From contig NZ_JAFN01000001.1 in NCBI RefSeq assembly GCF_000526155.1, positions 1,430,501 to 1,494,500 of the forward strand: a DNA stretch of 64,000 nucleotides, in the 5' to 3' direction. Source of the stretch: Deferrisoma camini S3R1. GTDB lineage: Bacteria; Desulfobacterota; Deferrisomatia; Deferrisomatales; Deferrisomataceae. Position numbers and translations under genes: made by a program. Below, piece after piece: positions 4,507-64,000 of the stretch. Within the stretch, counting starts at the first letter, position 1. Each line of letters begins with the position of its first letter. The notes beneath the pieces were generated by a model. That model searched no databases, was not told where the DNA came from, and saw nothing but the letters and a program-made list of their open reading frames with translations.

Positions 4507-4534
4507 CGTTCGCTCCCGATGTTGGTGGAATCCC

Positions 4535-4855: not shown

Positions 4856-5292
4856 TCCCTCACCTCCGTCGCCAGGTCCGCCGGTTCGGGCCGGCAGACG
4901 ATCCGGATCTCGTTTCCCCGCCCGATGAACTCCACCTCGTCCCCGTAGAGTCGAATCAGGGCGATCCCCCGGCCCTCGGATGCGGTCGGGACCGGCACCC
5001 TTTCCAGATGGGGTCTCCAGTCGAAGCCAGGTCCGTCGTCCGCCACCCGGGCCTCCCACCGCTGCGGGCCCACGGTGACCTCCACATCCACCCCCGATCC
5101 TCCCCCCCGCTTGCAGCCGTGGCGCACGGCGTTCACCAAAGCCTCCCGCAGCGCCAACCGGAACCCGAAGCTGGCCCTCCGGCATGCTTCCGGTGGCAAC
5201 AAGGCCCCCACCGCCTCCACGACCCGGTCCACGGCCCGGTAGTCGGGGTCGATGCGCACCCGGAACCGGCGGGTCCCCCCCGGATCGGTCAT
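4852..5292 (-). CDS. RsbW/SpoIIAB-like serine kinase (anti-sigma factor ATPase)
   Basis: A 146-residue GHKL ATPase. The N-box is seen in LALREALVNAVRHGCK, the G1 box in VADDGPGFDW, and a shortened lid/G2 region in SEGRGIALIRLYGDEV. In the family this domain phosphorylates the STAS antagonist and binds a sigma factor or other effector. The start ATG (MTDPGG) is 2 bp after the PP2C phosphatase stop, and the stop overlaps the STAS start by ATGA. Phosphatase, kinase and antagonist are therefore translated as one unit. Confidence 0.85.
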   Translation of the reverse strand: MTDPGGTRRFRVRIDPDYRAVDRVVEAVGALLPPEACRRASFGFRLALREALVNAVRHGCKRGGGSGVDVEVTVGPQRWEARVADDGPGFDWRPHLERVPVPTASEGRGIALIRLYGDEVEFIGRGNEIRIVCRPEPADLATEVRE

Positions 5293-5294
5293 GC

Positions 5295-6341: not shown

Positions 6342-6387
6342 AGGAGAATCGCTGACCACCGGTCCTTCCCCGCTCTCTTCCCCCGGC

Positions 6388-6424
6388 AAAAAAGAAGGGC
6401 CTCGTCCCCTTCCACGGCCCTTTC
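6388..6424 (-). terminator. Probable Rho-independent terminator after second chemoreceptor gene
   Basis: Read on the minus strand, AAGGGCC and GGCCCTT form a 7 bp stem with a 14-base loop, followed by six T residues. It lies between the end of the second chemoreceptor and the start of the phosphatase gene, so it would separate the two transcripts. Confidence 0.5.
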
Positions 6425-6459
6425 GCGGCATGCCCCCTCTTGCAACAAACATCGGATCG

Positions 6460-6491
6460 GCGCAGGGGGGGAAAACTTGAGCCCCCTGCGC
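6460..6491. repeat. Perfect 10 bp inverted repeat
   Basis: GCGCAGGGGG at 6460-6469 pairs exactly with CCCCCTGCGC at 6482-6491 across a 12-base loop. Seven A residues follow on the plus strand, so this is not a canonical terminator in either direction. It could be a leader structure or protein site in the 5' region of the phosphatase operon. Function is not known. Confidence 0.6.
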
Positions 6492-6864
6492 AAAAAAAGA
6501 AAACTCTCACAAAACAATTGCACCTCTCGGCCCGGGAGGTCCGCATCACGCCGAAGAAAATGGGCCGGGGACGAACCCGGCCCTGCCAGAAAAGACGCCA
6601 AAAACATGACAATCGAAGCCGAATCTTAAGGGAGGCCCCCACGCCGCGGTCGAGAGCAGGGGAGGGCCCGCGGAGGCCCCGACATATACAAACATTGTTT
6701 TGCCCCACTCTTTTCCAATGAAACCTGCCACATCGCCGTTCCCCGAGGGGAAAGAGGCCCGGCCAAGGGTCCGGGAGCCGAGAGTCCGGTCCGCCTCATA
6801 CCAAGTTGCATCCAAAGCCGGCGACTTGGGGGCCGTTGGCCCGGAGCGCTACGGCAACCTGGTA

Positions 6865-8697
6865 TCAGGTGCTGAACCGGTTCGTGAGGTGCCGCAGCTC
6901 GTCGGCCTTCTTCGCCACGGTGTCGGCCGTGCGGGCGATCTCCTCGCCGGCACGGGTGTTCTCTCCCACCCCCTGAGCGATCTGGTCCAGGTTCATGGCC
7001 AGGTGCTGGATCGTGGCCGTCAGCTCCTCGGTGGCCGCCGCGATCTGCTCCACCTGGGCGGCCGCTCCGCTCACCTCACTTTCCACCTCGGCCATGGCAC
7101 CGGCCGCCCTCCGCCCCAGATCCCTCCCCTGGGCCACCGCCGACACGCCCTCTTCCATCGCATCCACCGCCCGGCGGGCCTCGGCCTGGATCCCTTCGAC
7201 GGTCCGGGCGATCTGCTGAGTGGCCTTCACGGTGTCCGCCGCGAGCTTGCGCACCTCGTCCGCCACCACGGCGAAACCGCGACCGTGCTCGCCCGCCCGC
7301 GCTGCCTCGATGGTGGCGTTCAGGGCCAGGAGCTTCGTCTGGTCGGCGATCTCCTTGATCGTCCGGACGACCACGTCCACCTTCTCGGCCTCGGCGCCGA
7401 GCCCTTCCACCACCCGCCCGGCTCCGGCCACCACCTCCGCGATCCGTTCGAGGGACTCCCCGGTCTCCCGCACCATCCGACCCGCCTCCGCAGCCCTGCC
7501 CCGCGCCCGGTCCGCGGCCTGGGCCACACCTGCCGCGTTCTGGCTCACCTCCTGCACCGTGGCTCCCATCTCCTCGCCGCTCGCGGCCAGCACCTGGGTC
7601 TGCTGCGACACCTCCTCGGTGCTCGCCGCGATCTGGGTGGTGGTGGCCGACAGCTCCTCGCTCACCGCGGCCATCTCCCCGGCCGACTCCTTCACCTGCT
7701 CCACCATGTAGCGGATCTTGTTGGTGAAGATGTTCACCCAGTTGGCCAGTTGGTCGAACTCGTCCTGCTCGGCCGCCTGAAACACCTCGCAGGTGGCACA
7801 GTCGGTGACCTTGCCGGAGAGCACCGACGGGCACTGGATCTTTTCCGGGATGAGCTGCATGGACCCCACGTGGCTCCAGCAGGCCTCCTGTCTGCCGAAG
7901 CAGACGCACTCGTCGTGACCGCAGTCCTTGACCCCGGCGCAGTCCACGTATCGCAGGGGGATGCTCTTCGTGAGGTCGCCGTCACCTTCCGCCATCTCCT
8001 TCAGGCTCTTCACGAAACCCCGCATGCGGCGGGTCACGAACCGGTCCTGGAGGAACCAGGTACCGAGAGTGGCGGCCAAAAGCCCTACGAGACCCGCCCC
8101 GACCCCGGTCCACACGCTCGCCCGACGGGCCGAGGTCACGAAGTCTCGGGTCTCCTCCTCCGTCCGAGCCGTGGCGGCCAGCGCGTACCGGACGTACAGG
8201 ATGCCGGCGAGCGTTCCCGGTGCCGCCCCCCCGTGGCACTCTGCACACTCCTGCCGGAACCGATGGGCCCGCGCCACGATGACTTCGTCGCCCCGGGGCA
8301 CCACCACCGGATCCTTCGACCCCACCGCCTGCCGGACCGCGTCCGGGTCGAACCGCACGCCCGCCGAGGCACCCCCGCTCGCATAGACAACCGTGCCGTC
8401 CGGGTCCGTCAGCCCGATCTCGATCAGCCCCTCCACGCTTCCCAGGTCCGTGAGAAGCTCCTGAAACCCCGCCATCTCCCCCTTCTCCAGCGACCCTTTC
8501 GTGCCGATCTCCAGGCTCGAGAACACGGTGCGGGCCTGGCCGATCGCCGACGAGCGCAGCGTTTCGATGCTGCGCTCCCCCAGCTCCTCCAGCGCCGCAG
8601 TGGAGCGGGCGGTGGAGATCCAGGTGCTGCCCCCGAACGCCAGCAGGAGAACCCCCACCAGAAAACCGCAGACCTTCCCTTGGATTCCGACGCGCAT
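6865..8697 (-). CDS. Haem-type methyl-accepting chemotaxis protein with two-CW insert
   Basis: Chemoreceptor of 610 residues. The membrane segments are at about 9-28 and 196-216. The periplasmic part carries CAECH at 151-155, a c-type haem attachment motif as in Geobacter haem-containing sensors. After the HAMP region ([12 protein letters not shown]), a cysteine-rich insert at about 253-303 ([23 protein letters not shown]) parallels the receptor at the left window edge. The conserved signalling hairpin contains [19 protein letters not shown]. The ATG at 8697 follows a strong ribosome site (GGAAAGGAG). A sigma-28-like promoter lies about 340 bp upstream. A redox or gas stimulus is plausible but inferred. 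Confidence 0.92.
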
Positions 8698-8720
8698 GGC
8701 ACACTCCTTTCCAGCAACTT

Positions 8721-8748
8721 CGGTCGACGGTCGTTGGTCGTCGGTGCT
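8721..8748. repeat. Heptamer array (YGGTCNN, 4 units)
   Basis: Four 7-bp units of the YGGTCNN family lie directly upstream of the chemoreceptor ribosome site. This array cuts element A in half: only the distal half of A remains next to it. Confidence 0.8.
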
Positions 8749-8886
8749 CCGTGCCTGCGCGGCGAATCTCAATGCCCGGCTTCGCGCGCGGCCGGAAGCA
8801 GGCCCCATGGCTCCGCCACCAACAATGGCTCCGGGCCCACGCAAGTTACCCTTTCCCGTTGCCCGGCCCCGCAGGGGCCTGGCTGG
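8745..8886 (-). repeat. Half copy of element A plus element D
   Basis: Positions about 8745-8813 match one half of the 186-187 bp element A, including the end GGGGCCTGCTTCCGGCC read on the minus strand. Positions about 8814-8886 match the D segment, which has GGCCCCTGCGGGGCC followed by an AACGGGAAAGGGTAAC-like stretch. Together they lie in the 5' untranslated region of the chemoreceptor gene. Confidence 0.7.
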
Positions 8887-9030
8887 ACTTCCAAAGAACG
8901 GAGGATGGGAACCGATGGACGGTGAAACCAGGGAGAACCGAGGGAGGGAACCCACAGAGGAATTTCCAGAACAGACCTCTCTCCGGCTTGGGGGCTCGGA
9001 TGGCCCAATTCCTGCGAACCTTCCGGGTTA

Positions 9031-9058
9031 TTATCGGAGGGGAAGATTTCGGACTTTA
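9031..9058 (-). promoter_or_regulatory. Sigma-28 (FliA)-like promoter for the haem chemoreceptor
   Basis: On the minus strand TAAAGTCC (9051-9058), a 12 bp spacer and TCCGATAA (9031-9038) closely match the flagellar sigma consensus TAAAGTTT-N11-GCCGATAA. It points toward the chemoreceptor at 6865-8697 and lies in an A/T-rich gap just after the preceding gene's end. This links the receptor to a flagellar regulon. Confidence 0.6.
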
Positions 9059-9140
9059 GAACTCTTTAAAAAAATTTTCCGAGCGGCAGGCGGGTGGAGG
9101 GATGGTGGGGGGGGATCCCCGGCGGAGGGGCCCTTTCCTC

Positions 9141-9698
9141 TCAGGTGGCGACACCCCAAGCCTTCGCCAGGGTCGCCACCCAGGGCGGGCAGGCCCCCCT
9201 TTCCAAGAACCCCTCCCAGGTCGGATACCCCCCGCGCACCACGTACTCGAGGAGCGCCCGGAACTGGGTGGTGGAGAACTCGTACGGGCCGATGGTTGCC
9301 AGGTCCCGAGCGGGAGTCCATGTGATCGGGATCGTCACCCTGCGGGCCCACCGTGCCAGCACCCGCTCCACCTCGGGCCGGGTCCGGTGGCCCTCGAGCC
9401 TCTGACGAAAGGCGGCCTGGTCCTTTGGGAACGGCCACCTGCGGTACACCTCGCCCAAGTACCCCTCGAACCGCTCTCCCCGGATCGCCCCCACCAGGTC
9501 CCCGATCGCCCGACGGGAGGCGAACCGGTATCCGCGCAGGTCGGCCCTCCCGCCCGAGGTTGGGGGGATCTCCGCGAGGGTCCCGCAGAAGTCCGTACAA
9601 AAGAAGCTCAGGTCTTCGAGCAGCAGGCTGTCGGTCTCGATGTTGTAGAAACCGAACACGATCGTGCCGTGGGATCGGGATGGAAACGCAAGCGGCAT
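9141..9698 (-). CDS. Hypothetical protein, last gene of SPFH/zinc-ribbon operon
   Basis: A 185-residue protein of no recognised family. It has no signal peptide, membrane segment or cysteine motif apart from a central FFCTDFCGT. It contains several aromatic-rich stretches (TIVFGFYNIETDSLLLEDL). The start ATG is 2 bp downstream of the stop of the zinc-ribbon protein gene, so the three genes at 9141-12078 form one operon. Its role is presumably tied to the SPFH protein, but nothing in the sequence shows how. Confidence 0.72.
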   Translation of the reverse strand: MPLAFPSRSHGTIVFGFYNIETDSLLLEDLSFFCTDFCGTLAEIPPTSGGRADLRGYRFASRRAIGDLVGAIRGERFEGYLGEVYRRWPFPKDQAAFRQRLEGHRTRPEVERVLARWARRVTIPITWTPARDLATIGPYEFSTTQFRALLEYVVRGGYPTWEGFLERGACPPWVATLAKAWGVAT

Positions 9699-9700
9699 CG

Positions 9701-10978
9701 TCAGATCCCCCTTCCGCGCTCCAGGGCTGCCGCCGGAACGGCGGCTCCGGTCGCCTCTTCCACCCACTCGGCCCCTTGTCGCCGGAACGGCAGGAGCACC
9801 AGGCCCGCCCGGCGCACCCGCAGGCGTGCGGTGAGCACGGCCCGGCGCTTCCGGTACTGGGTTCCGGCCAGCTCGGCCAGCACCGGTTTGAGGCTCTGGG
9901 CGGCTTCGCCGAGGGGCAGCCGGGCCGGCTCCACCTCGACCGCGGCCGGCGGGAGGCGGTCGAGCCCGCCAGCCGGCAGGTCGGCGAGCGTCAGGTTCCG
10001 GCCGATCCGCAGGAACAACCGGGGGTGGGCCTTGAACGCCGGGATCCGCACCACCGCCGGCCGGCCCTCGTCGCCGTCGGAGGGCCTCCAGTACGGAACC
10101 GCCCACCGCACCAGGCCGGCCCGGCTCCGGAACGGCAACCCCCTCGCCGAGATCTCCAACTCCCAGAACGGCAGATACCGCGCCTCCGAGCTCCGGGCCG
10201 GCCGAACCGTGAACGGCAGCGGCGCGAGCCTCGCCCCCCGCGGCCACCACCCCCGGCCGCACCGGCCGCACCAGAACCCCACCGCGTGGGCCACCGTGGG
10301 CAGGTCGTCCCCGCACTCCGGGCACCGCAGGGCCAGGAACCGGTGCCTCCACTCCCGGGGCGGCTCGTCCAGCCCCTTGCGCAGACTAAGCGCCTCGGCT
10401 CGGCCGAGGAGGCCGGACGGTCCGTCCGGAAACAAGGCGGTCAGCCCCCAGTGCTCCCCCGCCCGCTCCAGGGCGAACGGCGCCCACAGCACCGCCGCCA
10501 CCTCCCCCACCAGCCGCCGGACCGGGGCTGGCCCGGCCGAGAGCCCCTCCACCCGCGCCTCGGAGACGGCCACGGCGTCACCAAGGGAGAGGTCGGGCCA
10601 CAGCACACGGCCCGCCTCCGGCACCCCCATGCGAAACGGAACCACCTGGGGTCGGATCCCCAGGCCGGACCCCTCTCTCACCCCCCGGCGGGCGTTCACG
10701 GTGGCGTCCAGGAGGATCCCCTCGGTGCTCCGCTCCCTCACCCGGTACCACAGGCCCCGAAACCGCCAGTAGGGGAACCACACGAGCCCGGGGGGAGGAG
10801 GATCCACGAGGGGCCAGTGGTAGACCAAGGGGCCCGCGGCCCGGACGTAGAGAGCCGTTCGGCAATACAGGCAGGGCACCACTGGATCGCCGACCCCTAG
10901 GACCACGGGGGCCGCGCACCGCGGGCAGGTGGTCTCGGCCCCGGGCCAGGGGCCTACTCCGTCAGACGGGTTCCGCAT
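9701..10978 (-). CDS. Zinc-ribbon protein associated with SPFH protein
   Basis: A 425-residue protein with an N-terminal zinc ribbon (CPRCAAPVV, then CLYC) and a second one near the middle (CPECGDDL, then CGRCGRGW). The rest is rich in Trp and Arg, with repeated W-P-Y-W-R type segments (VWFPYWRFRGLWYRV). No catalytic motif is recognised. The ATG at 10978 overlaps the end of the SPFH gene by 25 bp without a strong ribosome site, which suggests coupling. Bacterial SPFH proteins of the YdjI type are often encoded beside zinc-ribbon proteins of unknown function. Confidence 0.75.
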   Translation of the reverse strand: MRNPSDGVGPWPGAETTCPRCAAPVVLGVGDPVVPCLYCRTALYVRAAGPLVYHWPLVDPPPPGLVWFPYWRFRGLWYRVRERSTEGILLDATVNARRGVREGSGLGIRPQVVPFRMGVPEAGRVLWPDLSLGDAVAVSEARVEGLSAGPAPVRRLVGEVAAVLWAPFALERAGEHWGLTALFPDGPSGLLGRAEALSLRKGLDEPPREWRHRFLALRCPECGDDLPTVAHAVGFWCGRCGRGWWPRGARLAPLPFTVRPARSSEARYLPFWELEISARGLPFRSRAGLVRWAVPYWRPSDGDEGRPAVVRIPAFKAHPRLFLRIGRNLTLADLPAGGLDRLPPAAVEVEPARLPLGEAAQSLKPVLAELAGTQYRKRRAVLTARLRVRRAGLVLLPFRRQGAEWVEEATGAAVPAAALERGRGI

Positions 10979-12078
10979 GCGTTGCAGAACACGGCCTCCG
11001 GCCGGTTCTCGGCGCCGCAGGCCCCGCAGGTCCGGCTGCGCGGCCGGGCGTCGGCCGGGGCGCCGCACGCGGGGCAGAACCGCGCCCGGGCCGTCAGGTT
11101 CTTGCCGCAACCGGCGCACCGGCGCGCCACCAAGAGCTGGTGACCGCAGTGGGGGCAGAACCGGGCGTCATCGCCCACCGGCAGGCCGCACTCCGGGCAT
11201 GGGGCGGACCCGCTGGCCGGCGCCCTGTCGAGGGAACCCATGCCTGAGAGAAGCCCGGGCAGGATCATCCCCAGGCCCAGCCCCATGGCTCCTTCGGCCG
11301 GCCCGCCGGCGTCGGCCGCCCGCTCCAGCGCCTCGGCCACCTTGAGCTTCATGAGCTCGTCCAACCGGTCGCCCACCGCGCCCAGCCGGGTGCGGTCGTC
11401 GATGGCCCGCTGCACCTCGTCCGGCGGGGTGATGGCGTTGATGTACAGGGCGTCCAGGGCCAGCCCGTACCCGGCCAGATCCTGCGCCAGCCGTTCGTGA
11501 AGCCCCCGGGCCAGCTCCTCGTACCGGGTGGGCAGGTCCAGGAGCGAGCCCAGGTTCTCCCCCAGGTGGTCGTTCAACCGGGACACGATCACCTCGCCCA
11601 GGTACGCCTCCAGCGTGTCCACCGTGTAGGAAGCCTCGGTGCCCACCAGGGTGTTCACGAAAAGAACCGGCTGAACCACCCGCACGTTGCACATCCCGTG
11701 CGCCCGGAGCCGGACCAAGCCGAACTCCCGGTCCCGGAACGCCACGGGATCTCGGGTGCCCCACCTCAGGTTCGCGAACACCTTGAGGTTGACGAAGTAC
11801 ACCTCGGCCCGAAACGGGCTGGTGAACCCCCAGGGCAGGGCCAGGGCCTTGGTCAGCAGCGGGACGTTCTTGGTGATGAGGGTGTGGCGGCCCGGGCCCA
11901 GGGCATCACAGGCCACGCCGCCCGAAAAGAACACGGCCGCCTGGCTGTCGCGCACGATCACCTGGGCCCCCACCTTGAACTCACCGGATCCGCGCTCCGG
12001 GATCCGGTGGGCCACCTCCCGGCCGGAGGGGTCGAACCACTCGATGACCTCGAGGAACACCACGTTGTCCTTGCCCAT
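10954..12078 (-). CDS. SPFH/Band-7 domain protein with C-terminal tandem zinc ribbons (YdjI-like)
   Basis: A 374-residue cytoplasmic protein. Residues about 1-250 form an SPFH/virion-core-like domain (start MGKDNVVFLEVIEWFDPSG, later LNDHLGENLGSLLDLPTRYEE). A Gly-rich linker (GAMGLGLGMILPGLLSGMG) follows. The C-terminal third has CPECGLPVG / CPHCG, CAGCGKNL / CPACG and CGACGAEN / CNACG, that is, three zinc ribbons. YdjI relatives form membrane-associated or cytoplasmic scaffolds. It has no transmembrane segment and heads the three-gene operon 12078-9141. Confidence 0.85.
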   Translation of the reverse strand: MGKDNVVFLEVIEWFDPSGREVAHRIPERGSGEFKVGAQVIVRDSQAAVFFSGGVACDALGPGRHTLITKNVPLLTKALALPWGFTSPFRAEVYFVNLKVFANLRWGTRDPVAFRDREFGLVRLRAHGMCNVRVVQPVLFVNTLVGTEASYTVDTLEAYLGEVIVSRLNDHLGENLGSLLDLPTRYEELARGLHERLAQDLAGYGLALDALYINAITPPDEVQRAIDDRTRLGAVGDRLDELMKLKVAEALERAADAGGPAEGAMGLGLGMILPGLLSGMGSLDRAPASGSAPCPECGLPVGDDARFCPHCGHQLLVARRCAGCGKNLTARARFCPACGAPADARPRSRTCGACGAENRPEAVFCNACGTRLTE

Positions 12079-54469: not shown

Positions 54470-55840
54470 ATGTCGCAGATCAAGTACACGCTTCCCGAGT
54501 CGGAGATCCCCAAGCAGTGGTACAACATCGCAGCGGACATGCCGAACCCCATGAAGCCGCCCCTGCACCCGGGCACCGGGCAGCCGGTCGGGCCGGACGA
54601 CCTGGCCCCCCTGTTCCCCATGGCCCTGATCGAGCAGGAGGTGAGCACCCAGCGGTGGATCGACATCCCGGAGGAGGTGCTCCAGATCCTCCGGCTGTGG
54701 CGGCCCACCCCCCTGTTCCGGGCCCGGCGGCTGGAGGAGGCCCTGGGGACCCCGGCCAAGATCTACTACAAGTACGAGGGCACCAGCCCGGCCGGCAGCC
54801 ACAAGCCCAACACCAGCGTGGCCCAGGCCTACTACAACAAGAAGGAGGGCGTGAAGCGCATCGCCACCGAGACCGGCGCCGGCCAGTGGGGCAGCGCCTT
54901 GTCCCTGGCCTGCAACTTCTTCGGCATCGAGGCCAAGGTGTACATGGTGAGGATCTCCTACGAGCAGAAGCCCTACCGGCGCGTGCTCATGGAGACCTGG
55001 GGCGCCAGCGTGATCCCCAGCCCCTCGAACGAGACCGAGGCCGGCCGGAAGATCCTGGCCGAGGACCCGAACAGCACCGGATCCCTGGGCATCGCCATCT
55101 CCGAGGCCGTGGAGGACGCGGCCAGCCGCGAGGACACCAAGTACGCCCTGGGCTCGGTGCTCAACCACGTGCTGCTGCACCAGACCGTGGTGGGGCTCGA
55201 GGCCAAGAAGCAGATGGAGCTGGCCGGCGACTACCCGGACGTGATCCTGGGTTGCTGCGGAGGCGGCTCCAACTTCGCGGGCCTGACGTTCCCGTTCCTG
55301 TACGACAAGATCCACGGCCGTGAGATCGACGTGGTGGGCTGCGAGCCCACGGCCTGCCCCACCATGACCCGGGGCCACTTCCACTACGACTTCGGCGACA
55401 CGGTGGGCATGACCCCGCTGCTGCCCATGCACACCCTCGGCCACACCTTCGTGCCCCCGGGCATCCACGCCGGCGGGCTGCGCTACCACGGCATGGCCCC
55501 CCTGGTCAGCCAGCTCTTGAACGACGAGCTCATCCGGGCCGAGGCGTTCCACCAGGTGGAGTGCTTCGACGCGGCGGTCATGTTCGCCCGGGCCGAGGGC
55601 ATCGTGCCGGCGCCCGAGTCGAGCCACGCCATCCGGGGCGCCATCAACGAGGCCCTGAAGGCCAAGGAGGAGGGCAAGGAGAAGACGATCCTGTTCCTGC
55701 TCTCCGGCCACGGCCACTTCGATATGTCGGCCTACGACGCCTACTTCGGGAAGAAGCTCGAGGAGTACGAGCTGCCGCCCGAGGAGCTGGACAAGGCCTG
55801 GGAGGCCATCAAGGGCCTGCCCTCGCCCCAGGCGGCGTAG
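54470..55840 (+). CDS. trpB: TrpB2-type tryptophan synthase beta chain
   Basis: A 456-residue PLP enzyme of the long TrpB2 class (ordinary TrpB is about 400). The PLP Lys is in [13 protein letters not shown] (Lys112), phosphate loop in [14 protein letters not shown], and ETGAGQWG. It joins indole to serine; TrpB2 works without a TrpA partner and can salvage indole. Its adjacency to IorA connects it to indole and tryptophan metabolism. It has a strong ribosome site (AAGGAGG). A perfect terminator follows. Confidence 0.93.
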
Positions 55841-55847
55841 CACCTGC

Positions 55848-55886
55848 CACACCGGTGCCGGGGGACGTGCCCCCGGCACCGGTGTG
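55848..55886 (+). terminator. Strong hairpin terminator after trpB
   Basis: A 17 bp perfect stem (CACACCGGTGCCGGGGG with CCCCCGGCACCGGTGTG) closes a 5-base loop and is followed by TTTCGTT. It lies 7 bp after the trpB stop and would end the transcript of the molybdenum-enzyme/TrpB operon. Confidence 0.85.
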
Positions 55887-55929
55887 TTTCGTTCCAGCTT
55901 CCCAGCCTTCTAGCCTTTCAGGAGCCCCC

Positions 55930-58900
55930 ATGCACGCTACCGAGTACCGGTTCCTTCTCGGAAACGAGGCCATTGCCCGCGGCATCGTCGAGGCGGGGTG
56001 CCAGTTCGCCACCTCCTACCCCGGCACCCCCAGCTCGGAGATCCTGCCCGCCGTGGTGCGGTTCAAGGAGGAGATGGGCCTGGACCTGTACGCCGAGTGG
56101 TCCACCAACGAGAAGGTGGCCCTGGAGACGGCCCTGGCCGCCGCCTACTCGGGCAAGCGGGTCATGGTGGCCATGAAGCAGGTGGGGCTCAACGTGGCGG
56201 CCGACCCGGCCCTGTCGGCCGCGTACATCGGGGTGAAGGGCGGGCTGGTGCTGGTGGTGGCCGACGACCCCGGCCCCCACAGCTCCCAGACCGAGCAGGA
56301 CACCCGGCTGTTCGCCCGGTTCGCCAAGCTGCCGGTGCTCGACCCGGCCGACGCCCAGGAGGCCAAGGACCTGTGCGCCCGGGCGTTCGAGCTGTCGGAG
56401 CGCCACGAGATCCCGGTGATCCTGCGGCCGACGCTCCGGATCTGCCACTCCAGCCAGCGCATCGCGTGCGGGCCGGTCACCGGCCCGGGCCAGGAGGCCC
56501 GGTTCGACAAGAACCCCCGGCGGTGGGCGGCCACCCCCCGGGCGCGGTTCGAGCTTCACCGGCTGCTGAACCAGAAGCTCGCGGCCATCGCCGACGAGGC
56601 GGCCTCGTGGCCCGAGAACCGGCTCCACCTGCCCGAGGGCACGGCGCCCCTGGGCATCGTGGCCTCGGGCATCGCCTACGCCTACGTGATGGACCTGCTG
56701 GAGTCCCTGGGGCTCTCGGACCGGGTGGCCGTGCTGAAGCTGGCATTGGCCCACCCCCTGCCCCCCGCGCCCCTGGAGGGGCTGGCGGGCCGGTGCGAGC
56801 GGGTCCTGGTGATCGAGGAGCCCGACGCCGCGGTGGAGACCCAGCTGCGGCTCGACGTGCCCGTGTGGGGCCGGCTCACCGGCCACGTGCCCCGGGCCGG
56901 GGAGCTCACCCCCGAGCGGCTCCGCGAGGTGCTCGGCCGGGCGGCCGAGGAGGCCGGTCTGACCGTGCCCGAGCCCCAAACCGGGACCCCGGGGGCGGCC
57001 CAGGGGCTGCCGATCCGCCGGCCCACCCTGTGCCCGGGGTGTGGCCACCGGGCCTCGTTCTACGGCATCCGACGGGCGTTCCCCCGGGGGATCTTCCCAG
57101 GGGACATCGGGTGCTACACCCTCGGGCTCAACCTGGGCGCCGTGGACACGGTCCACTGCATGGGCGCCTCGGTATCCATGGCGGCCGGCTTCTTCCATGC
57201 CCACGCCCAGGACGGCGACCCGCCCCCCATCGTGGCCACCATCGGCGACAGCACCTTCTACCACTCGGGCGTGCCGGCCCTGGAGAACGCCGTGTACAAC
57301 GGCGCCCGGTTCGTGCTCGTGGTCCTCGACAACGAGATCACGGGCATGACCGGCATGCAGCCCACCCCGGAGTTCGGCACCACGGCCGACGGCCACCCCG
57401 GCCGGGCGATCTCCCTCGAGGGCCTGATCCGGGGGTGCGGGGTGGAGTACGTGGACCACGCCGACCCGTTCGATGCCGACGGCTTCCAGCGCCGGCTGTT
57501 CCGGGCCTGGGAGCACGCCCGCTCCCCGGACGGCGGGGTGGCCGTGCTGGTGGTGCGCTACCCCTGCGTGACCCGGTTCGGGGCCACCCTGCCGGGCCGG
57601 CCCCGGATCCCGGTCGAGGTGGTCCACGGGCCCCTGCCCCGACTCGAGGACGGCTCCTGGAAGCCCGCCTGGAGGCCCCGACACCAGGACAAGGTGAGCC
57701 CCTGTGTGGAGGCGTGCCCGGCCGGGAACGACGTGGAGCGGCTGCTGGCCTTTGCCGCCGAGGGTAGGTGGGACGAGGCCGCGGACCTGGTGCTGACCGA
57801 GCACCCCTTCCCCGCGACCCTGGGCCGGGTGTGCCCCCACTTCTGCGAGGAGGCCTGCAACCGGGCCGGAGCGGACGGGGCCCTGGGCGTCCACTGGATC
57901 GAACGGGCCGCGGGCGACGCCGCCCGGGGCCGGCCCGCCCCGGCGAGGGCCGCCACCCCCACCGGCCGGAGCGTGGCCGTGGTGGGGGCGGGGCCGGCCG
58001 GGCTCACGGCCGCGTACCACCTGGCCCGGCTGGGGCACCGGGTGGAGGTGTTCGAAGCCCTTCCCGAACCCGGAGGCATGCTGCGGTGGGCCATCCCCGA
58101 CTACCGACTGCCCCGGGACGTGATCGAGGCCGAGGTCTCCCGCATCCTGGAGGCCGGCGTGGTGCTGCACACCGGGGTGGCCGTGGGCCGCGATCGGCCC
58201 CTGGCCGACCTGCTGGCCCACGACGCCGTGCTCCTGGCCACCGGCGGGGGACGGGAGCGGCGGCTCGGGATTCCGGGGGAGGATCGCGAGGGGGTCTGGA
58301 CCGGGCTCGGGTTCCTGCGGGCCCTGAAGGCCGGGGGGGACGCCCCCGGCGTGGGCCGGCGGGTGGCCGTGATCGGCGGGGGCAACACGGCCATCGACGC
58401 GGCCCGCTCGGCCCGGCGGCTGGGCGCCGAGGTCACCGTGTACTACCGCCGGGGGCCGGATCGGCTCCGGGCCATCCCCGAGGAGGTGGAGGCGGCCCGG
58501 GCCGAGGGGATCTTCTTCCGGTTCCACGCCGCCCCCGAGGAGGTCTCGGCCGGCCGGAGCCGGCGACTGTCGGTGCGGTTCCGCAACACCCGAGCCGCCC
58601 AAGAGCATCCCTTCGGGCTCTCCCCCCAGGTGGAGGGCCAGCCGACCGAGTTCTGGGCCGAGGTGGACACCGTGGTGGTGGCCGTGGGGCTCCAGCCCGA
58701 CCTGCCCGAGGGCGCGCCCTCAGACCTTACGCCCGACGAATGGGGCCGCACGGGCGTGCCCCGGGTGTACGTGGCGGGCGACGCGGCGCCCGACGCCGCC
58801 GGCACGGTGGCCCATGCCGTGAACGCGGGCAAGCGCGCCGCGCTCGCGATCCACGCGGACCTCACCGGCGAGGGGCTCGAGCCCCGGGCCCTGCGGATCG

Positions 58901-59475
58901 CCCGGGGCCCGGGCATCAGCCTCCAGGCCTGGGCCGAGCCCGGGGGCGGCCGGGCCGGCCGGGTCCAGGCGGTGCCCCCCCTGCGCACCATCCAGCGCCG
59001 GTACTTTCCCGACGTGCCGAGGGCGAACGCCCGGGCCCTCCCCCCGGACGACGCGATCTGGAGCTTTGCCGAGGTGGACCGGGGGCTCCCCCTGGAGAAG
59101 GCGGCCCGCGAGGCCCGGGACCGGTGCTTCCACTGCGGGGTGTGCACCCGGTGCGACCGGTGCCTGGAGGTGTGCCCAACCGGCGCCATCTCCCGGGAGG
59201 GCGACACCTACCGGGTGGACGAGGACAAGTGCACCCTGTGCCGGCTGTGCCAGGTGGAGTGCCCCCGCAACGCCATCACCATGCCCCGCACCGAGTCGTG
59301 CGTGGCCTGCGGGTACTGCACCACCTGGTTCGAGTGCCCGGCGCTGGTGCGGGGCCCCGACGGCCGGGCCGTGGTGGACGAGGGGCTGTGCATCGAGTGC
59401 GGGCTGTGCATCCAGGTGTGCCCCCAGGGCGCCATTCGGCCCAGGGTGTCCGAGGCGGAGCTCGCTTCTGGTTGA
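55930..59475 (+). CDS. iorA: Fused indolepyruvate:ferredoxin oxidoreductase alpha / GltD-like flavoprotein / polyferredoxin
   Basis: An 1181-residue fusion. Residues about 1-560 are an IorA: pyrimidine-side start NEAIARGIVEAGCQFATSYPG, TPP-binding GDSTFYHSGVPALENAVYNG near 438, zinc/Fe-S-like CPGCGHRAS. Residues about 590-1010 are a GltD-type NAD(P)H oxidoreductase, with PCVEACPAGNDV, FAD motif GAGPAGLTAAYHLARLG near 687 and NAD motif GGGNTAIDAARSARRLG near 816. The last about 110 residues have four Cys clusters (CFHCGVC, CTLCRLCQVECP, CVACGYC, CIECGLCIQVCP). It oxidatively decarboxylates aryl pyruvates to aryl-acetyl-CoA. IorB is not adjacent. The GltD part would move electrons to NAD(P). 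Confidence 0.9.
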   Translation: MHATEYRFLLGNEAIARGIVEAGCQFATSYPGTPSSEILPAVVRFKEEMGLDLYAEWSTNEKVALETALAAAYSGKRVMVAMKQVGLNVAADPALSAAYIGVKGGLVLVVADDPGPHSSQTEQDTRLFARFAKLPVLDPADAQEAKDLCARAFELSERHEIPVILRPTLRICHSSQRIACGPVTGPGQEARFDKNPRRWAATPRARFELHRLLNQKLAAIADEAASWPENRLHLPEGTAPLGIVASGIAYAYVMDLLESLGLSDRVAVLKLALAHPLPPAPLEGLAGRCERVLVIEEPDAAVETQLRLDVPVWGRLTGHVPRAGELTPERLREVLGRAAEEAGLTVPEPQTGTPGAAQGLPIRRPTLCPGCGHRASFYGIRRAFPRGIFPGDIGCYTLGLNLGAVDTVHCMGASVSMAAGFFHAHAQDGDPPPIVATIGDSTFYHSGVPALENAVYNGARFVLVVLDNEITGMTGMQPTPEFGTTADGHPGRAISLEGLIRGCGVEYVDHADPFDADGFQRRLFRAWEHARSPDGGVAVLVVRYPCVTRFGATLPGRPRIPVEVVHGPLPRLEDGSWKPAWRPRHQDKVSPCVEACPAGNDVERLLAFAAEGRWDEAADLVLTEHPFPATLGRVCPHFCEEACNRAGADGALGVHWIERAAGDAARGRPAPARAATPTGRSVAVVGAGPAGLTAAYHLARLGHRVEVFEALPEPGGMLRWAIPDYRLPRDVIEAEVSRILEAGVVLHTGVAVGRDRPLADLLAHDAVLLATGGGRERRLGIPGEDREGVWTGLGFLRALKAGGDAPGVGRRVAVIGGGNTAIDAARSARRLGAEVTVYYRRGPDRLRAIPEEVEAARAEGIFFRFHAAPEEVSAGRSRRLSVRFRNTRAAQEHPFGLSPQVEGQPTEFWAEVDTVVVAVGLQPDLPEGAPSDLTPDEWGRTGVPRVYVAGDAAPDAAGTVAHAVNAGKRAALAIHADLTGEGLEPRALRIARGPGISLQAWAEPGGGRAGRVQAVPPLRTIQRRYFPDVPRANARALPPDDAIWSFAEVDRGLPLEKAAREARDRCFHCGVCTRCDRCLEVCPTGAISREGDTYRVDEDKCTLCRLCQVECPRNAITMPRTESCVACGYCTTWFECPALVRGPDGRAVVDEGLCIECGLCIQVCPQGAIRPRVSEAELASG

Positions 59476-59574: not shown

Positions 59575-60882
59575 CTAGGAAGGGGCGCGGGTCTTGCCCG
59601 AGAGCCGGGCCTCCTGGATCAGAATGGGCCCCAGCGTGCGGTCCAGGAAGCGGCGCTGGCACTCCACCCCCATCCGCCCCTCCCGTTGGTACTTCATGTA
59701 GCGGCAACCGCCCAGGCACAGGGGCAGATACTCGCACTCCCGGCACGCGGCAGCGGTGCGCAGGCGGTCCAGGGCGAACCGTTCCCGGTAGTCCTGGAAC
59801 CCCTCCCACAGGTCCCCCGCCACGAACTGTTCGTGCCCCACCAACGCCGGGCACTTGGTCAGGGTGCCGTCGTAGTGAACCGTGAAGGCGTACTCCAGAT
59901 CCACCATGCACGCGATGGGTGCGATCTTGGGGGGGCGGTAGCCCCGCTTGAGAACCTCCTCCCGGAGGAACACAGTGGCCTCGGCCACCCAGTCCTCGTT
60001 TATCGAGGCGCATCCCACACACGACTCCGGCGGCGCAAACTCGTCCGTGGTGTGCATCACCGGGCTGAACTGGATCGGCCCCACCGCTTCCGGCCCGAGC
60101 CCCCGGTCCGACAGGTCGTCGAGGAGCTCTGGGAAGCGACGGTAGTTGTCCCGCGTATAGGTGCCGGCAAGGCCGATCCGGGTTCGGCCCGCACACCTCT
60201 TCAGGTTCGCCACGATCGCCTCGTAACTCCCCCGGCCCGAGCGAAACGGCCGGAACCGATCGTGGACGTCCCCGGGGCCGTCCAGGGTCACCCGCACGCC
60301 CATCAGCCCCAAGGGGTTCAGCTCGTCCACGATCTCGGGGGTCAGGAGGGATCCGTTCGTGACCAGGGTGCAGTGGAAGCGGCCTCCCCGCTCCTCCACG
60401 AGCCGCTTCAGGCTCCCCGAGATCCGGACGATCGCGTCCCGATACAGGAGAGGCTCGCCCCCGTAGAAGTCCACCACCACCGTGTCCATGCCCGGGAGAA
60501 ACCTCTGATCCACGAACTCCACCAGGCGATCCTCGGTGGCCCGGTCCATGCGGGCGGGTCCTTTGAGGCTCCCTTCATAGCAGTAGGAGCACCGAAAGTT
60601 GCACTCCATGCCCAGGATGACGGCGATGGTGAGCCCGGTGGTCTCTCGGTTGGCTCGGTCCAGAAATCCGAACGCCTCCCGGACCTCGGCCTCCCGGTCG
60701 CGAACCAGGATCCCCAGCCGGAGGAGCGGCTCCTCCGCCTCGGGCGGGATCTCCCCCGCCTCCAGCCGCCGGTACAGATCCTCCGGGAGCAAAAGCATGG
60801 AGGTCTTCCGGGTGGAGAACACCAGGAGCGTTCCGGGCCGTCCCGGGAAAGGGTAGGCTTTCACGTACGCGGACAGAACCAC
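59575..60882 (-). CDS. Radical SAM/SPASM peptide maturase (geopeptide-maturase-like)
   Basis: A 435-residue enzyme. The SAM 4Fe-4S motif CNFRCSYC is at 94-101 and GGEPLL at 141. The C-terminal SPASM region has Cys288, 291, 325, 344 and a C-x2-C-x5-C-x3-C motif at 380-393, with Cys408, so two auxiliary clusters are likely. The N-terminal about 80 residues resemble those of peptide maturases. Such enzymes install thioether or C-C links in RiPPs. GTG 60882 has a near-perfect ribosome site (GGAGGTGATCC). The substrate is probably the 36-residue peptide at 62543. Confidence 0.88.
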   Translation of the reverse strand: MVLSAYVKAYPFPGRPGTLLVFSTRKTSMLLLPEDLYRRLEAGEIPPEAEEPLLRLGILVRDREAEVREAFGFLDRANRETTGLTIAVILGMECNFRCSYCYEGSLKGPARMDRATEDRLVEFVDQRFLPGMDTVVVDFYGGEPLLYRDAIVRISGSLKRLVEERGGRFHCTLVTNGSLLTPEIVDELNPLGLMGVRVTLDGPGDVHDRFRPFRSGRGSYEAIVANLKRCAGRTRIGLAGTYTRDNYRRFPELLDDLSDRGLGPEAVGPIQFSPVMHTTDEFAPPESCVGCASINEDWVAEATVFLREEVLKRGYRPPKIAPIACMVDLEYAFTVHYDGTLTKCPALVGHEQFVAGDLWEGFQDYRERFALDRLRTAAACRECEYLPLCLGGCRYMKYQREGRMGVECQRRFLDRTLGPILIQEARLSGKTRAPS

Positions 60883-61229
60883 GGATCACCTCCGGCGGTG
60901 GCACCCCTCCCGTGGGCCAGGCCGAGCCCTTCCGGATCGGCCCGCGCACCAACGGAAATGGGCGATTCCGTCAAGCAGCCGGGCGATCATACCCAGCTCC
61001 GACGGGATTGTCACGCCGCCCTGGATCGACCTCCTCCTTGTATCTTCCCGTGGCTCCACGGAATATGGTGGCCTCCGCCGCCGGGATATACCGCCCCTTC
61101 TGTGGGGGCGCCGCAGGCCGCGGCACACGGCCGCCGCTCGGCCCCCGCGACGGAGGAGACCGGGCCTGCCCCCCCCCGGGGAGGACAGCCGCCTCGGTGC
61201 CGCTCGCCCCGCCTCGAACGGAAAAGCGC
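60883..61229. promoter_or_regulatory. Divergent control region between maturase and exporter
   Basis: 347 bp separate the divergently transcribed maturase and MFS genes. A palindrome CCGTGG-CT-CCACGG lies at 61048-61061 and could be an operator. No consensus promoter is clear. Base composition here and in the exporter gene is less GC-rich than in the catabolic genes. Confidence 0.5.
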
Positions 61230-62495
61230 ATGTGTGAGCCCAGTGGCCTGTGGAACCGAAACTTCCTGTTGTTCTGGCAGGGTCAAGCCGTCAGCCTGGC
61301 CGGATCGTCACTAAGCACGATGGCCGTGGCCCTGTGGATCGTGGACGCCACGGGCTCTGCTGCCCTGTTGGGAGCGGTGATGATGGTGGGATCCCTCGCC
61401 GGACTTTTGGCCACCCCAATTGCGGGAGCCGTGGCCGACCGGTACCCCCGAGTGAGGGTCATCGTGTGGTGCGATGCGTTCCAAGGGTTGTCGGCCTTGA
61501 CCATGGCTGGAGCGGTTTGGGCCTTTCCGACAGCCCCATCCCTTGCTTTGGCTGCCCTGTTCCTTTTCTACGCGGCCGGCATGGCGACCTCCGCCGTGTT
61601 CGCTGCCGCCGCCCGGGCACTGGTTCCCGACCTCGTGCCCCCCGACCTGGTGCCCTCGGCCAACACGGCCACGCTGGCGGTCGTGCAAACCGCGGGGCTT
61701 GCGGGCAAGGGCTTTGGGGGCACGGCCTACCGCCTGCTGGGCGCCCCGTTTCTGCTGGCCGTCGACGGCATCACGTACTTGATCAGCTCGGCCACCGAGG
61801 CGTTCATCCGACTCCCCCAGGCCCCTTCTCGGCCCTCCGCCGGCTGGGGCGAGGCGGTTCGCGGCCTGGCAACGGAGGCAAAGGAAGGCTTCCGGTACGT
61901 GTGGGGCGATCCCGGCCTTCGGGCCGCCGTGCTAGCGACCGCCTGCACCACGTTTTGCCTGGAGCCCTTGGTGGTGCTCCTGCCGTTCCTGGTGAAGGAC
62001 ACGAGGTTTCTCGGGCTCCCGGCCGACTGGTACGGATACCTCCTGGCCGGGTACGGGGCCGCCAACATTGCAGGATACTGGCTGGCCGGCCACACGTCCC
62101 TTCGAGGGGGGGGCCTGGCGGCGGGAACCATGGGGGTGGCCGGCGTTGGCTTTGTGGGGCTGGGATTGGCCCGGAGCCCCGGGGCGGCTCTCGGGTGGAT
62201 CGCGGCCAGCGGTCTGGCTCTGGGGTTCTACAACAACTCTCTCCTCTCCCAGGTCCAGACCCGGGTTCCCGCCCATCTGCGGGCCCGGGCCCTGACGGCC
62301 TTCCAGACCCTTACCATGGTGTTGGTGCCGCTGGGCATCGGCCTGGCCGGGGCGGCAGCGGAGCTGCCAGGGCGAAGGGTGGACCTGGTGTTTACGGGCG
62401 CGGGACTGGCGACGGCGCTCGCGGCGCTGCTCGCGTCCTCACGCGCAGGGTACCGGGAGCTTCTCTCGCCCCGCTCGTCCGTTCGCCGCCAATAA
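61230..62495 (+). CDS. MFS efflux transporter (peptide/drug exporter type)
   Basis: A 421-residue membrane protein with 12 hydrophobic segments. It begins NRNFLLFWQGQAVSLAGSSL and has loop motif A-like GAVADRYPRVRVIVWCD between helices 2 and 3, typical of MFS exporters of the enterobactin/macrolide type. Codon use is visibly less GC-biased than in the catabolic operons (many TTT, TTG, CCT codons), suggesting a transferred gene. ATG 61230 has GGAAAAG upstream. It lies between the maturase and precursor genes, so export of the modified peptide is the likely job. Confidence 0.87.
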   Translation: MCEPSGLWNRNFLLFWQGQAVSLAGSSLSTMAVALWIVDATGSAALLGAVMMVGSLAGLLATPIAGAVADRYPRVRVIVWCDAFQGLSALTMAGAVWAFPTAPSLALAALFLFYAAGMATSAVFAAAARALVPDLVPPDLVPSANTATLAVVQTAGLAGKGFGGTAYRLLGAPFLLAVDGITYLISSATEAFIRLPQAPSRPSAGWGEAVRGLATEAKEGFRYVWGDPGLRAAVLATACTTFCLEPLVVLLPFLVKDTRFLGLPADWYGYLLAGYGAANIAGYWLAGHTSLRGGGLAAGTMGVAGVGFVGLGLARSPGAALGWIAASGLALGFYNNSLLSQVQTRVPAHLRARALTAFQTLTMVLVPLGIGLAGAAAELPGRRVDLVFTGAGLATALAALLASSRAGYRELLSPRSSVRRQ

Positions 62496-62519
62496 AAAAG
62501 CGGGAGCCGAAGCTCCCGC
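62494..62519 (-). terminator. Rho-independent terminator of the precursor peptide gene
   Basis: On the minus strand GCGGGAGC-TTCG-GCTCCCGC is an 8 bp perfect stem with a stable UUCG tetraloop, followed by TTTTTT. It begins 23 bp after the precursor stop codon. Confidence 0.93.
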
Positions 62520-62542
62520 CGACAATCTTACTCAAAGGCACC

Positions 62543-62653
62543 TTAGCCGCTCCACCGAAAAATCGCCACAGAAGTGAAGCAACACGTGGTCATCGGCCCG
62601 AAAGCCTCCCCGTCGATCCCCTCGTCCAGAACCAGAATGCCGAGCTCTTCCAT
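62543..62653 (-). CDS. RiPP precursor peptide (36 residues)
   Basis: A short gene with ATG at 62653, a perfect ribosome site AAAGGAGG 7 bp upstream and TAA at 62543. The leader begins MEELGILVLDEGIDGEAFG, acidic and hydrophobic. The end is TTCCFTSVAIFRWSG, with adjacent Cys residues 24 and 25 and no others. Two Cys beside Thr, Ser and aromatic residues suit thioether or C-C crosslinking by the SPASM maturase at 59575. Its own terminator lies right downstream, implying strong separate expression. The layout resembles Geobacter geopeptide systems. Confidence 0.85.
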   Translation of the reverse strand: MEELGILVLDEGIDGEAFGPMTTCCFTSVAIFRWSG

Positions 62654-62745
62654 CGTCTGACCTCCTTTCTCCGGGTGGTCGGGAACGGACGTCCAGCGCC
62701 CTGCCAAAACGACGTTTTTAGTCTAGCTCGGACCGGAACCGGAAA

Positions 62746-64000
62746 TCAAAAGGAAAATCGCAGCCCCACCTCCACCCACCGGTCCGGGTTGGGCCGGTCC
62801 GGGTCGGTGTACTGCCGCCCTTGGAACAGGTTGTGGGCCGTGAGGAACGCTTCCATGCCCACACCTGCCCCCACCCGAAACCGCTTCCACAGGTTCAGGT
62901 CCCATATGGGGTCGTTGCGATCCCCCTCGTCCGGGCCCTGGTCCCACCACACGAAGTGACCGGCCAGCTCCCCGTGGAACGAGCCGGGCCAGCGGTGGAC
63001 CAAGGCCACGTCGAAGGTATACTGCTCCCGGTCGTCCCCATCCCCTTCCTGGTCGTGGTCCACGTAGCCCAGGCCCCACCGCAGCGAGGTACGGAGCACC
63101 GGCGCGGTCTCCAGCTCCAGCTCCATCCCGGCCCGGGTGGCCCCCTCGCCGTTCACCTTGCGCACGTTCCCTTCGGTGTCTGGGGACGGCTCGGCTACCC
63201 GTTGGTCCACCAACCGGTGCCAGAACCCCGTGGCCTTTACCCACAGGAACGGGATCGCCTTGGTCTCCACCCCGGCCTGGATCGACCAGATCTTCTCCGG
63301 CTCCAGATCCGGGTTCGGGTCGGTGCTTGCGCCCCCGCCCGAGAGCTCGGACAGCGGGGGGCTCGAGAACCCCCGAGCGGCCGTGGCCCGGACCACGGTC
63401 TGCCGCCCCACCCGCCGCACCGCACCGAAGCTGGGGCTGACGATCGGGCCGGTCACCGAGTGCTCGTCGTACCGCAACCCAGGGGTCAGGCTCCAGCCGG
63501 CCACCGAGAAAGTGTCGTTGAGGTAGACCCCCCACCGATCCAGCTCGGGGCTGGAGGTGAACCGGGCTGGGGTCCCCCGCGACTGGAAGACCGGCCCGGA
63601 CTCCACGGTCTGATCCAACCGGCCGTGGTCGTAATCCACCCCCAGCACCACCACGTGGCCCTCGGGACTCCACACCAACCGTGCCCGGAGACCCTCCGAA
63701 ACCTCGTCGAACCGCACCTCCCGAACCAGGGACCCCGTAGGCCCCCGCGTCCCGTCTTCATAGCCGGTCCCACGAAGACGGTGATCGTAACGGTACGCAG
63801 CGAAGTGAGCCCCCAACCGTTCCCCGAGGTCCATGTCCGCCATGATCGTGCCGAAAGCCGCGTGAAGGTCGTCTTCGGATCTGACCCCTTGCCCCACCAG
63901 GTGGCCAGATTCTGGCTCCGCCTCTGCATATCCGCCCATGAAGCCGACTCGCAGCCCTGGTCGTACAGGCAGTGAGAACTTGGCATAAGCCGCCCGGTTC
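62746..64000 (-). CDS. TonB-dependent outer-membrane receptor, C-terminal part
   Basis: The frame is open to the window edge, so about 418 C-terminal residues are present and the N-terminus is missing. Amphipathic beta strands alternate throughout. SPSFGAVRRVGRQTVVRATAARGFSSPPL and NPDLEPEKIWSIQAGVE match the TonB-receptor barrel, and it ends WVEVGLRFSF with the required terminal Phe. These receptors import siderophores, cobalamin or metal-peptide complexes. It lies 92 bp before the precursor peptide in the same direction and may share its transcript. Confidence 0.88.
   Translation of the reverse strand, partial: NRAAYAKFSLPVRPGLRVGFMGGYAEAEPESGHLVGQGVRSEDDLHAAFGTIMADMDLGERLGAHFAAYRYDHRLRGTGYEDGTRGPTGSLVREVRFDEVSEGLRARLVWSPEGHVVVLGVDYDHGRLDQTVESGPVFQSRGTPARFTSSPELDRWGVYLNDTFSVAGWSLTPGLRYDEHSVTGPIVSPSFGAVRRVGRQTVVRATAARGFSSPPLSELSGGGASTDPNPDLEPEKIWSIQAGVETKAIPFLWVKATGFWHRLVDQRVAEPSPDTEGNVRKVNGEGATRAGMELELETAPVLRTSLRWGLGYVDHDQEGDGDDREQYTFDVALVHRWPGSFHGELAGHFVWWDQGPDEGDRNDPIWDLNLWKRFRVGAGVGMEAFLTAHNLFQGRQYTDPDRPNPDRWVEVGLRFSF

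What the first reader, a model, noticed from the sequence alone, without database searches (positions are those of the whole stretch)
59575..64000. RiPP locus: 36-residue Cys-Cys precursor, SPASM maturase, MFS exporter and TonB receptor
The peptide at 62543-62653 is too small for routine calling but has a perfect ribosome site, a terminator with a UUCG loop, an acidic leader and a short core with adjacent cysteines (TTCCFTSVAIFRWSG). A radical SAM/SPASM enzyme and an MFS exporter are adjacent. The TonB receptor next to the precursor raises the idea that the peptide is a metal-binding compound that is exported and taken up again. Existing geopeptide annotations cover similar maturases; the combination with a TonB receptor is, as far as I know, not described.
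Basis: partly seen in the sequence, partly recalled or inferred. Interest (0 to 1): 0.88.

Follow-up and report, generated by a model that had tools for sequence, protein, structure and literature searches.

The report
Modified peptide with its own receptor-sensor
A tiny gene in this bacterium encodes a 36-residue peptide that an adjacent enzyme probably crosslinks, and in some 25 comparable loci the same peptide gene travels with its own outer-membrane receptor, a periplasmic binding protein and a sensor kinase, which suggests that bacteria release this peptide and then take it back in to read it.

Summary
Window 62543-62653(-) encodes a 36-aa peptide and 59575-60882(-) a radical SAM/SPASM maturase that passes NCBI's geopeptide maturase model TIGR04280 (496 bits, cut-off 400), with an MFS gene between them and a TonB receptor next to the peptide. 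The peptide scores below the TIGR04229 geopeptide cut-off (17.3 against 30) but shares an invariant Gly and Cys-Cys with 28 precursors beside related maturases, so it is a divergent geopeptide. In 148 relatives, 17 of 18 genomes with the maturase carry the same TonB subfamily and 0 of 130 without it do; every such TonB gene sits at a maturase locus. Two genes just beyond the window, a PF04392 periplasmic binding protein and a sensor histidine kinase, complete a conserved five-gene cassette. The MFS gene is not conserved outside the window's order. I favour a secreted, modified Cys-Cys peptide that re-enters through a dedicated receptor and is read by binding protein and kinase (self-sensing or metallophore-like). 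Metal binding, crosslink chemistry and export are untested. Maturase and precursor are known in silico families without a paper in the open library searched; I found no description of the cassette.

The parts
59575..60882 (-). Geopeptide-type radical SAM/SPASM maturase (435 aa, GTG start); N-terminal domain shaped like a RiPP recognition element, then radical SAM core (CNFRCSYC) and SPASM domain
   Evidence: TIGR04280 496 bits, cut-off 400; PF04055; invariant Cys columns; model pLDDT 88.9, best solved match CteB 5why/5wgg over model residues 4-428, Z about 28, rmsd about 4, 381-391 aligned
61230..62495 (+). MFS transporter (421 aa), probable exporter in this lineage; accessory, not part of the conserved core
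   Evidence: PF07690 and PF05977; TIGR00900 and EntS matches below cut-offs; found beside the cassette only in G000, G001, G002, G004, G007
62499..62520 (-). Intrinsic terminator of the precursor gene, TTCG tetraloop
   Evidence: Scan; hairpin kept in the two congeners, with CTCG for TTCG in one
62543..62653 (-). Geopeptide precursor, 36 aa: leader with ILVLDEG, core CC-x7-R
   Evidence: 29-member precursor alignment, invariant G12, C24, C25; TIGR04229 17.3 bits, below cut-off 30; pattern unique in the window
62660..62668 (-). Ribosome-binding site AAAGGAGGT of the precursor
   Evidence: Read directly; identical in G001 and G002
62706..62718 (-). 13-bp palindrome AAAACGTCGTTTT just downstream of the -10 box, candidate operator
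   Evidence: Perfect copy once in G000, once in G002, twice in G001; conserved in the three orthologous promoters. No regulator identified
62720..62749 (-). Candidate precursor promoter TTGATT-N18-TAGACT
   Evidence: Hexamers conserved in three congeners with spacing 17-18; below the threshold of the generic scan; inference
62746..64000 (-). TonB-dependent receptor, C-terminal 417 aa; gene continues past the window (complete: L008:5247-7205)
   Evidence: PF07715 plug and PF00593 barrel; same subfamily at maturase loci. Next genes, outside the window: histidine kinase L008:7202-8941(-) and PF04392 binding protein L008:8950-about 9885(-)

Best explanation
The locus makes a small ribosomal peptide whose maturase, guided by the leader, modifies the C-terminal CC-x7-R core (most likely thioether formation by the Cys pair; inferred). 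The mature peptide leaves the cell (through the MFS protein here, by an unknown route elsewhere; inferred), and the cell or its neighbours recapture it with a dedicated TonB receptor (association shown, ligand inferred). In the periplasm the PF04392 protein binds the cargo and reports to the Cache-like input domain of the sensor kinase (inferred), which drives different outputs in different hosts (domain architecture shown). So it is a self-recognised peptide: a signal, or a metallophore whose return is monitored.
For: Co-occurrence: 17 of 18 maturase genomes have the TonB subfamily, 0 of 130 others, Fisher p 2e-21, not corrected for phylogeny. All 22 TonB hits at E<=1e-45 are at maturase loci, two of them on broken contigs that still carry the precursor. 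In 10 further genomes 14 of 17 TonB hits are beside a maturase, 2 lie on a contig that ends just after the second of them, and 1 is a frameshifted orphan without maturase. Binding protein and kinase recur in nearly every neighbourhood long enough to judge, in several gene orders and orientations, while flanking genes differ and are mostly housekeeping genes, so general synteny does not explain it. Distances of the maturase correlate with those of TonB 0.77, binding protein 0.83, sensor half of the kinase 0.85; binding protein with sensor half 0.91 but with kinase half 0.43. Kinase outputs vary: hybrid, sigma-54 regulator, LuxR-type regulator. TonB distance tracks core-peptide distance beyond maturase distance (partial r 0.29, p 0.0004; 0.22 to 0.37 in subsets), binding-protein distance does not (0.05). 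No ABC permease or ATPase is in the conserved set. The maturase fold is closest to CteB, a thioether-forming maturase, including the N-terminal part.
Against: No exporter and no leader peptidase is conserved across the loci. TonB fold and sequence point only broadly to BtuB and siderophore receptors, so the ligand could be something else. Maturase distance also correlates with the core given TonB (0.21), and partial Mantel tests on 25 related loci overstate significance. Binding proteins of this type also occur in genomes without the cassette. The Cache-like match of the kinase input domain is just below Pfam's gathering score (21.0 against 22.1). No experiment exists.
Confidence: 0.5

Rival explanations
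1. Metallophore in the strict sense: the modified Cys-Cys peptide binds a soft or transition metal outside the cell and its main purpose is to carry the metal back through the TonB receptor, as methanobactin does for copper; the kinase merely regulates it.
For: Invariant adjacent cysteines; TonB receptor of the BtuB/siderophore-receptor kind; MFS protein with weak EntS similarity in this lineage; methanobactin shows a RiPP with exporter, TonB transporter and regulators in one operon (PMC3621798).
Against: No inner-membrane metal or peptide importer is in the conserved set. The cysteines may be consumed in thioethers. No metal-related gene was found in the conserved set.
Confidence: 0.25
2. The peptide is not the cargo. 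The TonB receptor, binding protein and kinase sense an external compound, and the geopeptide is an intracellular or envelope product made in response (for instance a redox cofactor or metal buffer).
For: No conserved exporter. PF04392 proteins and membrane sensor kinases are broad families with many ligands.
Against: One TonB subfamily is confined to maturase genomes and its divergence tracks the core sequence; the one orphan receptor found without a maturase is frameshifted.
Confidence: 0.18
3. The peptide is an antibacterial that enters competitors through their TonB receptor, and the linked receptor and kinase serve self-detection.
For: Some antimicrobial peptides enter Gram-negative cells by TonB receptors (general knowledge). 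The core sequence is variable.
Against: No candidate immunity gene is conserved at the loci; receptor and maturase are inherited as a unit.
Confidence: 0.05

Closest known systems
NCBIfam geopeptide system: TIGR04280 maturase and TIGR04229 precursor
   Same: Maturase passes the model; precursors beside it share the VLxEG leader and the Cys-Cys core
   Different: The window precursor is below the TIGR04229 cut-off; an opposite-strand MFS gene separates it from the maturase; receptor, binding protein and kinase are not part of those two models
Methanobactin operons (mbn)
   Same: RiPP precursor with cysteines, exporter, TonB transporter and regulation in one locus; periplasmic binding proteins in some (PMC3621798)
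   Different: Different chemistry: mbn uses MbnB/MbnC, this uses a radical SAM/SPASM enzyme; here a histidine kinase with a PF04392 protein rather than a sigma factor pair; metal binding unknown
CteB (SCIFF) and other thioether-forming radical SAM maturases
   Same: Best solved-structure match over nearly the full length, including the N-terminal domain
   Different: About 20% identity; scores far below the SCIFF and PapB model cut-offs; substrate has a Cys-Cys pair rather than six spaced cysteines
PeuRS-PeuA of Vibrio parahaemolyticus (two-component system next to a TonB enterobactin receptor)
   Same: Two-component pair adjacent to a TonB receptor, responding to its ligand (PMC4141801, abstract)
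   Different: No RiPP and, from the abstract, no PF04392 protein mentioned; ligand is a non-ribosomal siderophore

Membership tests
Geopeptide maturase TIGR04280 | Whole-protein score at or above 400 bits | tested here: met
   496.2 bits, residues 1-426 of 435 on profile 1-426 of 428
Geopeptide maturase TIGR04280 | Radical SAM CxxxCxxC and SPASM Cys pattern | tested here: met
   C94, C98, C101 and C325, C344, C380, C383, C389, C393, C408 invariant in 18 relatives
Geopeptide precursor TIGR04229 | Score at or above 30 bits | tested here: not met
   17.3 bits; 12 of 29 precursors match the model at E<=1. The model looks narrow rather than the peptide foreign, but by the curated rule it is not a member
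Geopeptide precursor (wider sense) | Small ORF at a TIGR04280 locus with conserved leader Gly and core Cys-Cys | tested here: met
   Alignment of 29 precursors, three invariant columns; pattern specificity
SCIFF maturase TIGR03974 | Score at or above 425 bits | tested here: not met
   104.3 bits
PapB ranthipeptide maturase NF047865 | Score at or above 340 bits | tested here: not met
   121.2 bits
Sactipeptide or ranthipeptide | Cys-to-carbon thioether in the product | not testable with these tools
   Needs co-expression and mass spectrometry
Methanobactin | MbnB (DUF692, PF05114) maturation enzyme | tested here: not met
   The peptide-modifying enzyme in the cassette is radical SAM PF04055; no PF05114 among scanned neighbours
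Methanobactin | Copper binding | not testable with these tools
   No biochemical data
TonB-dependent receptor | Plug PF07715 and barrel PF00593 above gathering scores | tested here: met
   78.4 and 104.4 bits; a relative's barrel folds closest to BtuB

The most novel reading that the evidence does not exclude
A previously undescribed class of Gram-negative peptide communication: a radical-SAM-modified ribosomal peptide that re-enters through its own co-inherited TonB receptor and is read by a dedicated periplasmic binding protein and sensor kinase, with interchangeable kinase outputs, spread across Geobacter-type Deltaproteobacteria, Nitrospirae and relatives.
Probability: 0.35. Interest if true: 0.88.

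Novelty: new variant of a known kind. Interest (0 to 1): 0.64.

Why it matters
RiPPs with a dedicated TonB receptor are known mainly from methanobactin. Here the receptor, a binding protein and a kinase are tied to one maturase family across at least two phyla, which gives a ready prediction of ligand, receptor and sensor for a peptide family that has had a name but, in the open literature searched, no function. It would make peptide sensing across an outer membrane directly testable, and it occurs in lineages that include Geobacter-type organisms.

Tried and rejected
Aromatic amino acid link: the window cassette lies between trpB2-like/indolepyruvate oxidoreductase-like genes and trpA/trpB-like genes, the PF04392 protein is distantly TrpX-like, and one relative has chorismate synthase and prephenate dehydratase downstream; tblastn showed that this is not repeated at other loci. 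Rfam: no RNA family in the window. Palindrome as a regulon operator: perfect copies are confined to the precursor promoter except one extra in G001, so no regulon was found. Conserved exporter elsewhere: the downstream neighbours scanned were housekeeping genes, regulators or a methyltransferase. A phylum-wide search around a Nitrospirae locus failed on a handle error and was replaced. No paper in the library holds 'geopeptide', TIGR04280 or TIGR04229; searches combining TonB with RiPP, SPASM or ranthipeptide gave nothing on this system. Only open-licence papers were searchable. The VIA-align list is a second look at Foldseek matches; families absent there are not excluded.

Full report
OBSERVATION. 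The precursor at 62543-62653(-) is MEELGILVLDEGIDGEAFGPMTTCCFTSVAIFRWSG with ribosome site AAAGGAGGT. The TTCG-loop terminator is at 62499-62520. The maturase at 59575-60882(-) passes the NCBIfam geopeptide maturase model TIGR04280, 496 bits against a cut-off of 400, and carries the radical SAM and SPASM cysteines. The MFS gene lies between them on the other strand. The TonB receptor runs off the window; its full gene is L008:5247-7205.

THE PEPTIDE IS REAL. Its score to the geopeptide precursor model TIGR04229 is 17.3, below the cut-off of 30, so by that rule alone it would be left unnamed. Next to relatives of the maturase I found matching small ORFs. Aligned with the window's, 29 precursors share an invariant glycine and adjacent cysteines, a leader like VLxEG, and in most an Arg or Lys about eight residues after the cysteines. 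Over 550 kb of these neighbourhoods plus the window, a pattern of these features hit the precursors at maturase loci and three stray places, two of them interrupted by stops. Two congeners keep the peptide at 92% and 97% identity with the same ribosome site, promoter hexamers and a 13-bp palindrome at the presumed start of transcription. Codon changes were 7 synonymous to 1 non-synonymous against one congener and 1 to 3 against the other, too few to settle selection.

A FIVE-GENE CASSETTE. The genome has a second maturase locus. The genes beyond the window edge are a sensor histidine kinase and a PF04392 periplasmic binding protein, in line with the TonB gene. Mapping these onto the maturase neighbourhoods showed binding protein, kinase, TonB receptor, precursor and maturase together nearly everywhere the contig is long enough, in several orders and orientations. 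Genes outside this set differ between loci: chorismate synthase, DNA polymerase I, elongation factor P, ATP synthase and others. The MFS gene is present in 6 of 33 neighbourhoods, all in the window's order.

CO-OCCURRENCE. Among 148 relatives, 18 have the maturase at E<=1e-60 and 17 have the TonB subfamily at E<=1e-45; all 17 are among the 18. Fisher p is 2e-21, not corrected for relatedness. The one exception, G041, has a divergent maturase (35% identity). All 22 TonB genes lie at maturase loci, two of them on contigs that break before the maturase but still carry the precursor. In ten further genomes reached through named contigs (Nitrospirae, Deltaproteobacteria, Geotalea and others), 14 of 17 TonB hits are beside a maturase, two sit on a contig that ends just after the second of them, and one is a frameshifted orphan with kinase and binding protein but no maturase.

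CO-INHERITANCE. Distances between loci correlate for maturase with TonB 0.77, binding protein 0.83, sensor half of the kinase 0.85, kinase half 0.60. Binding protein with sensor half is 0.91, with kinase half 0.43. Kinases are hybrids with receiver domains, neighbours of sigma-54 activators, or HisKA_3 kinases with LuxR-type regulators. The input co-evolves with the cassette while the output is exchanged, which suggests that what is sensed is the constant. TonB distance predicts core-peptide distance beyond maturase distance (partial r 0.29; 0.22 to 0.37 in subsets), binding-protein distance does not. Two loci illustrate this: L117 and L115, with QGP/TGP cores, have TonB receptors closest to L009's (TGP core), while their maturases are closest to L116's (different core). 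These tests treat related loci as independent and are supportive only.

STRUCTURE. The maturase model (pLDDT 88.9) starts with three strands and three helices, the shape of a RiPP recognition element (family knowledge), and matches CteB over nearly its full length, Z about 28; CteB is also the best sequence match among solved structures. A TonB receptor from a relative folds closest to BtuB, with siderophore and haem receptors close behind (model pLDDT 72), so the fold does not name the ligand.

MECHANISM. Shown: the genes, their conservation and co-inheritance, maturase family and fold, variable kinase outputs. Inferred: leader-guided thioether formation at the Cys pair, export, re-entry through TonB, hand-over to the binding protein and kinase. 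I put about one half on a self-recognised, re-imported and sensed peptide, a quarter on a strict metallophore, and less on the peptide not being the cargo or being an antibacterial.

KNOWN OR NEW. Maturase and precursor families exist as NCBIfam models; no open paper found mentions them. Methanobactin is the closest functional analogue (PMC3621798) and differs in enzyme and regulator. TonB receptors next to two-component systems are known, for example PeuRS-PeuA (PMC4141801, abstract). The combination with a radical SAM RiPP and a PF04392 protein was not found described, within the limits of an open-licence library. I rate it a new variant of a known kind.

Noticed in passing
L009 (genome C1:1892000-1906000): Second geopeptide cassette in the same genome, with precursor MGEQEIQILEEGKDVREVAASGDCCKTGPQNLRT, its own TonB receptor, response regulator, kinase and binding protein; maturase 50% identical to the window's.
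   Followed up: yes
L129 (G001:C114:56000-75999), 8245-8567: Two tandem precursors between an MFS gene and the maturase, with near-identical cores KTGPEALR and KTGPENLR.
   Followed up: partly
L178 (G153:C28:1-13941), 3999-8531: Orphan kinase, binding protein and TonB receptor without maturase or recognisable precursor; the TonB frame is broken near residue 500, as if decaying.
   Followed up: partly
L040 (Geotalea toluenoxydans draft), 7857-11209: Both TonB receptor and maturase appear frame-disrupted; decay or draft-assembly errors.
   Followed up: no
L180 (G104:C21:5000-11400); peptide in L025:1279-1476(+): Divergent maturase (31% identity) with the TonB subfamily nearby but no canonical precursor; an ORF just upstream contains AAAGCCPSVGKLRSSGAPEGKAKNAAQQTAKKG after a basic stretch, perhaps a different precursor type.
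   Followed up: partly
window 62706-62718: Perfect palindrome AAAACGACGTTTT in the precursor promoter, found once in this genome and once in G002; regulator unknown.
   Followed up: partly
L034:11324-11995: SAM-dependent methyltransferase gene directly after the maturase in a Nitrospirae locus; possibly a second modification there.
   Followed up: no
window 54470-59475 and L008:12266-13947: The cassette is flanked by trpB2-like and indolepyruvate oxidoreductase-like genes on one side and trpA/trpB-like genes on the other; not conserved at other cassettes.
   Followed up: yes
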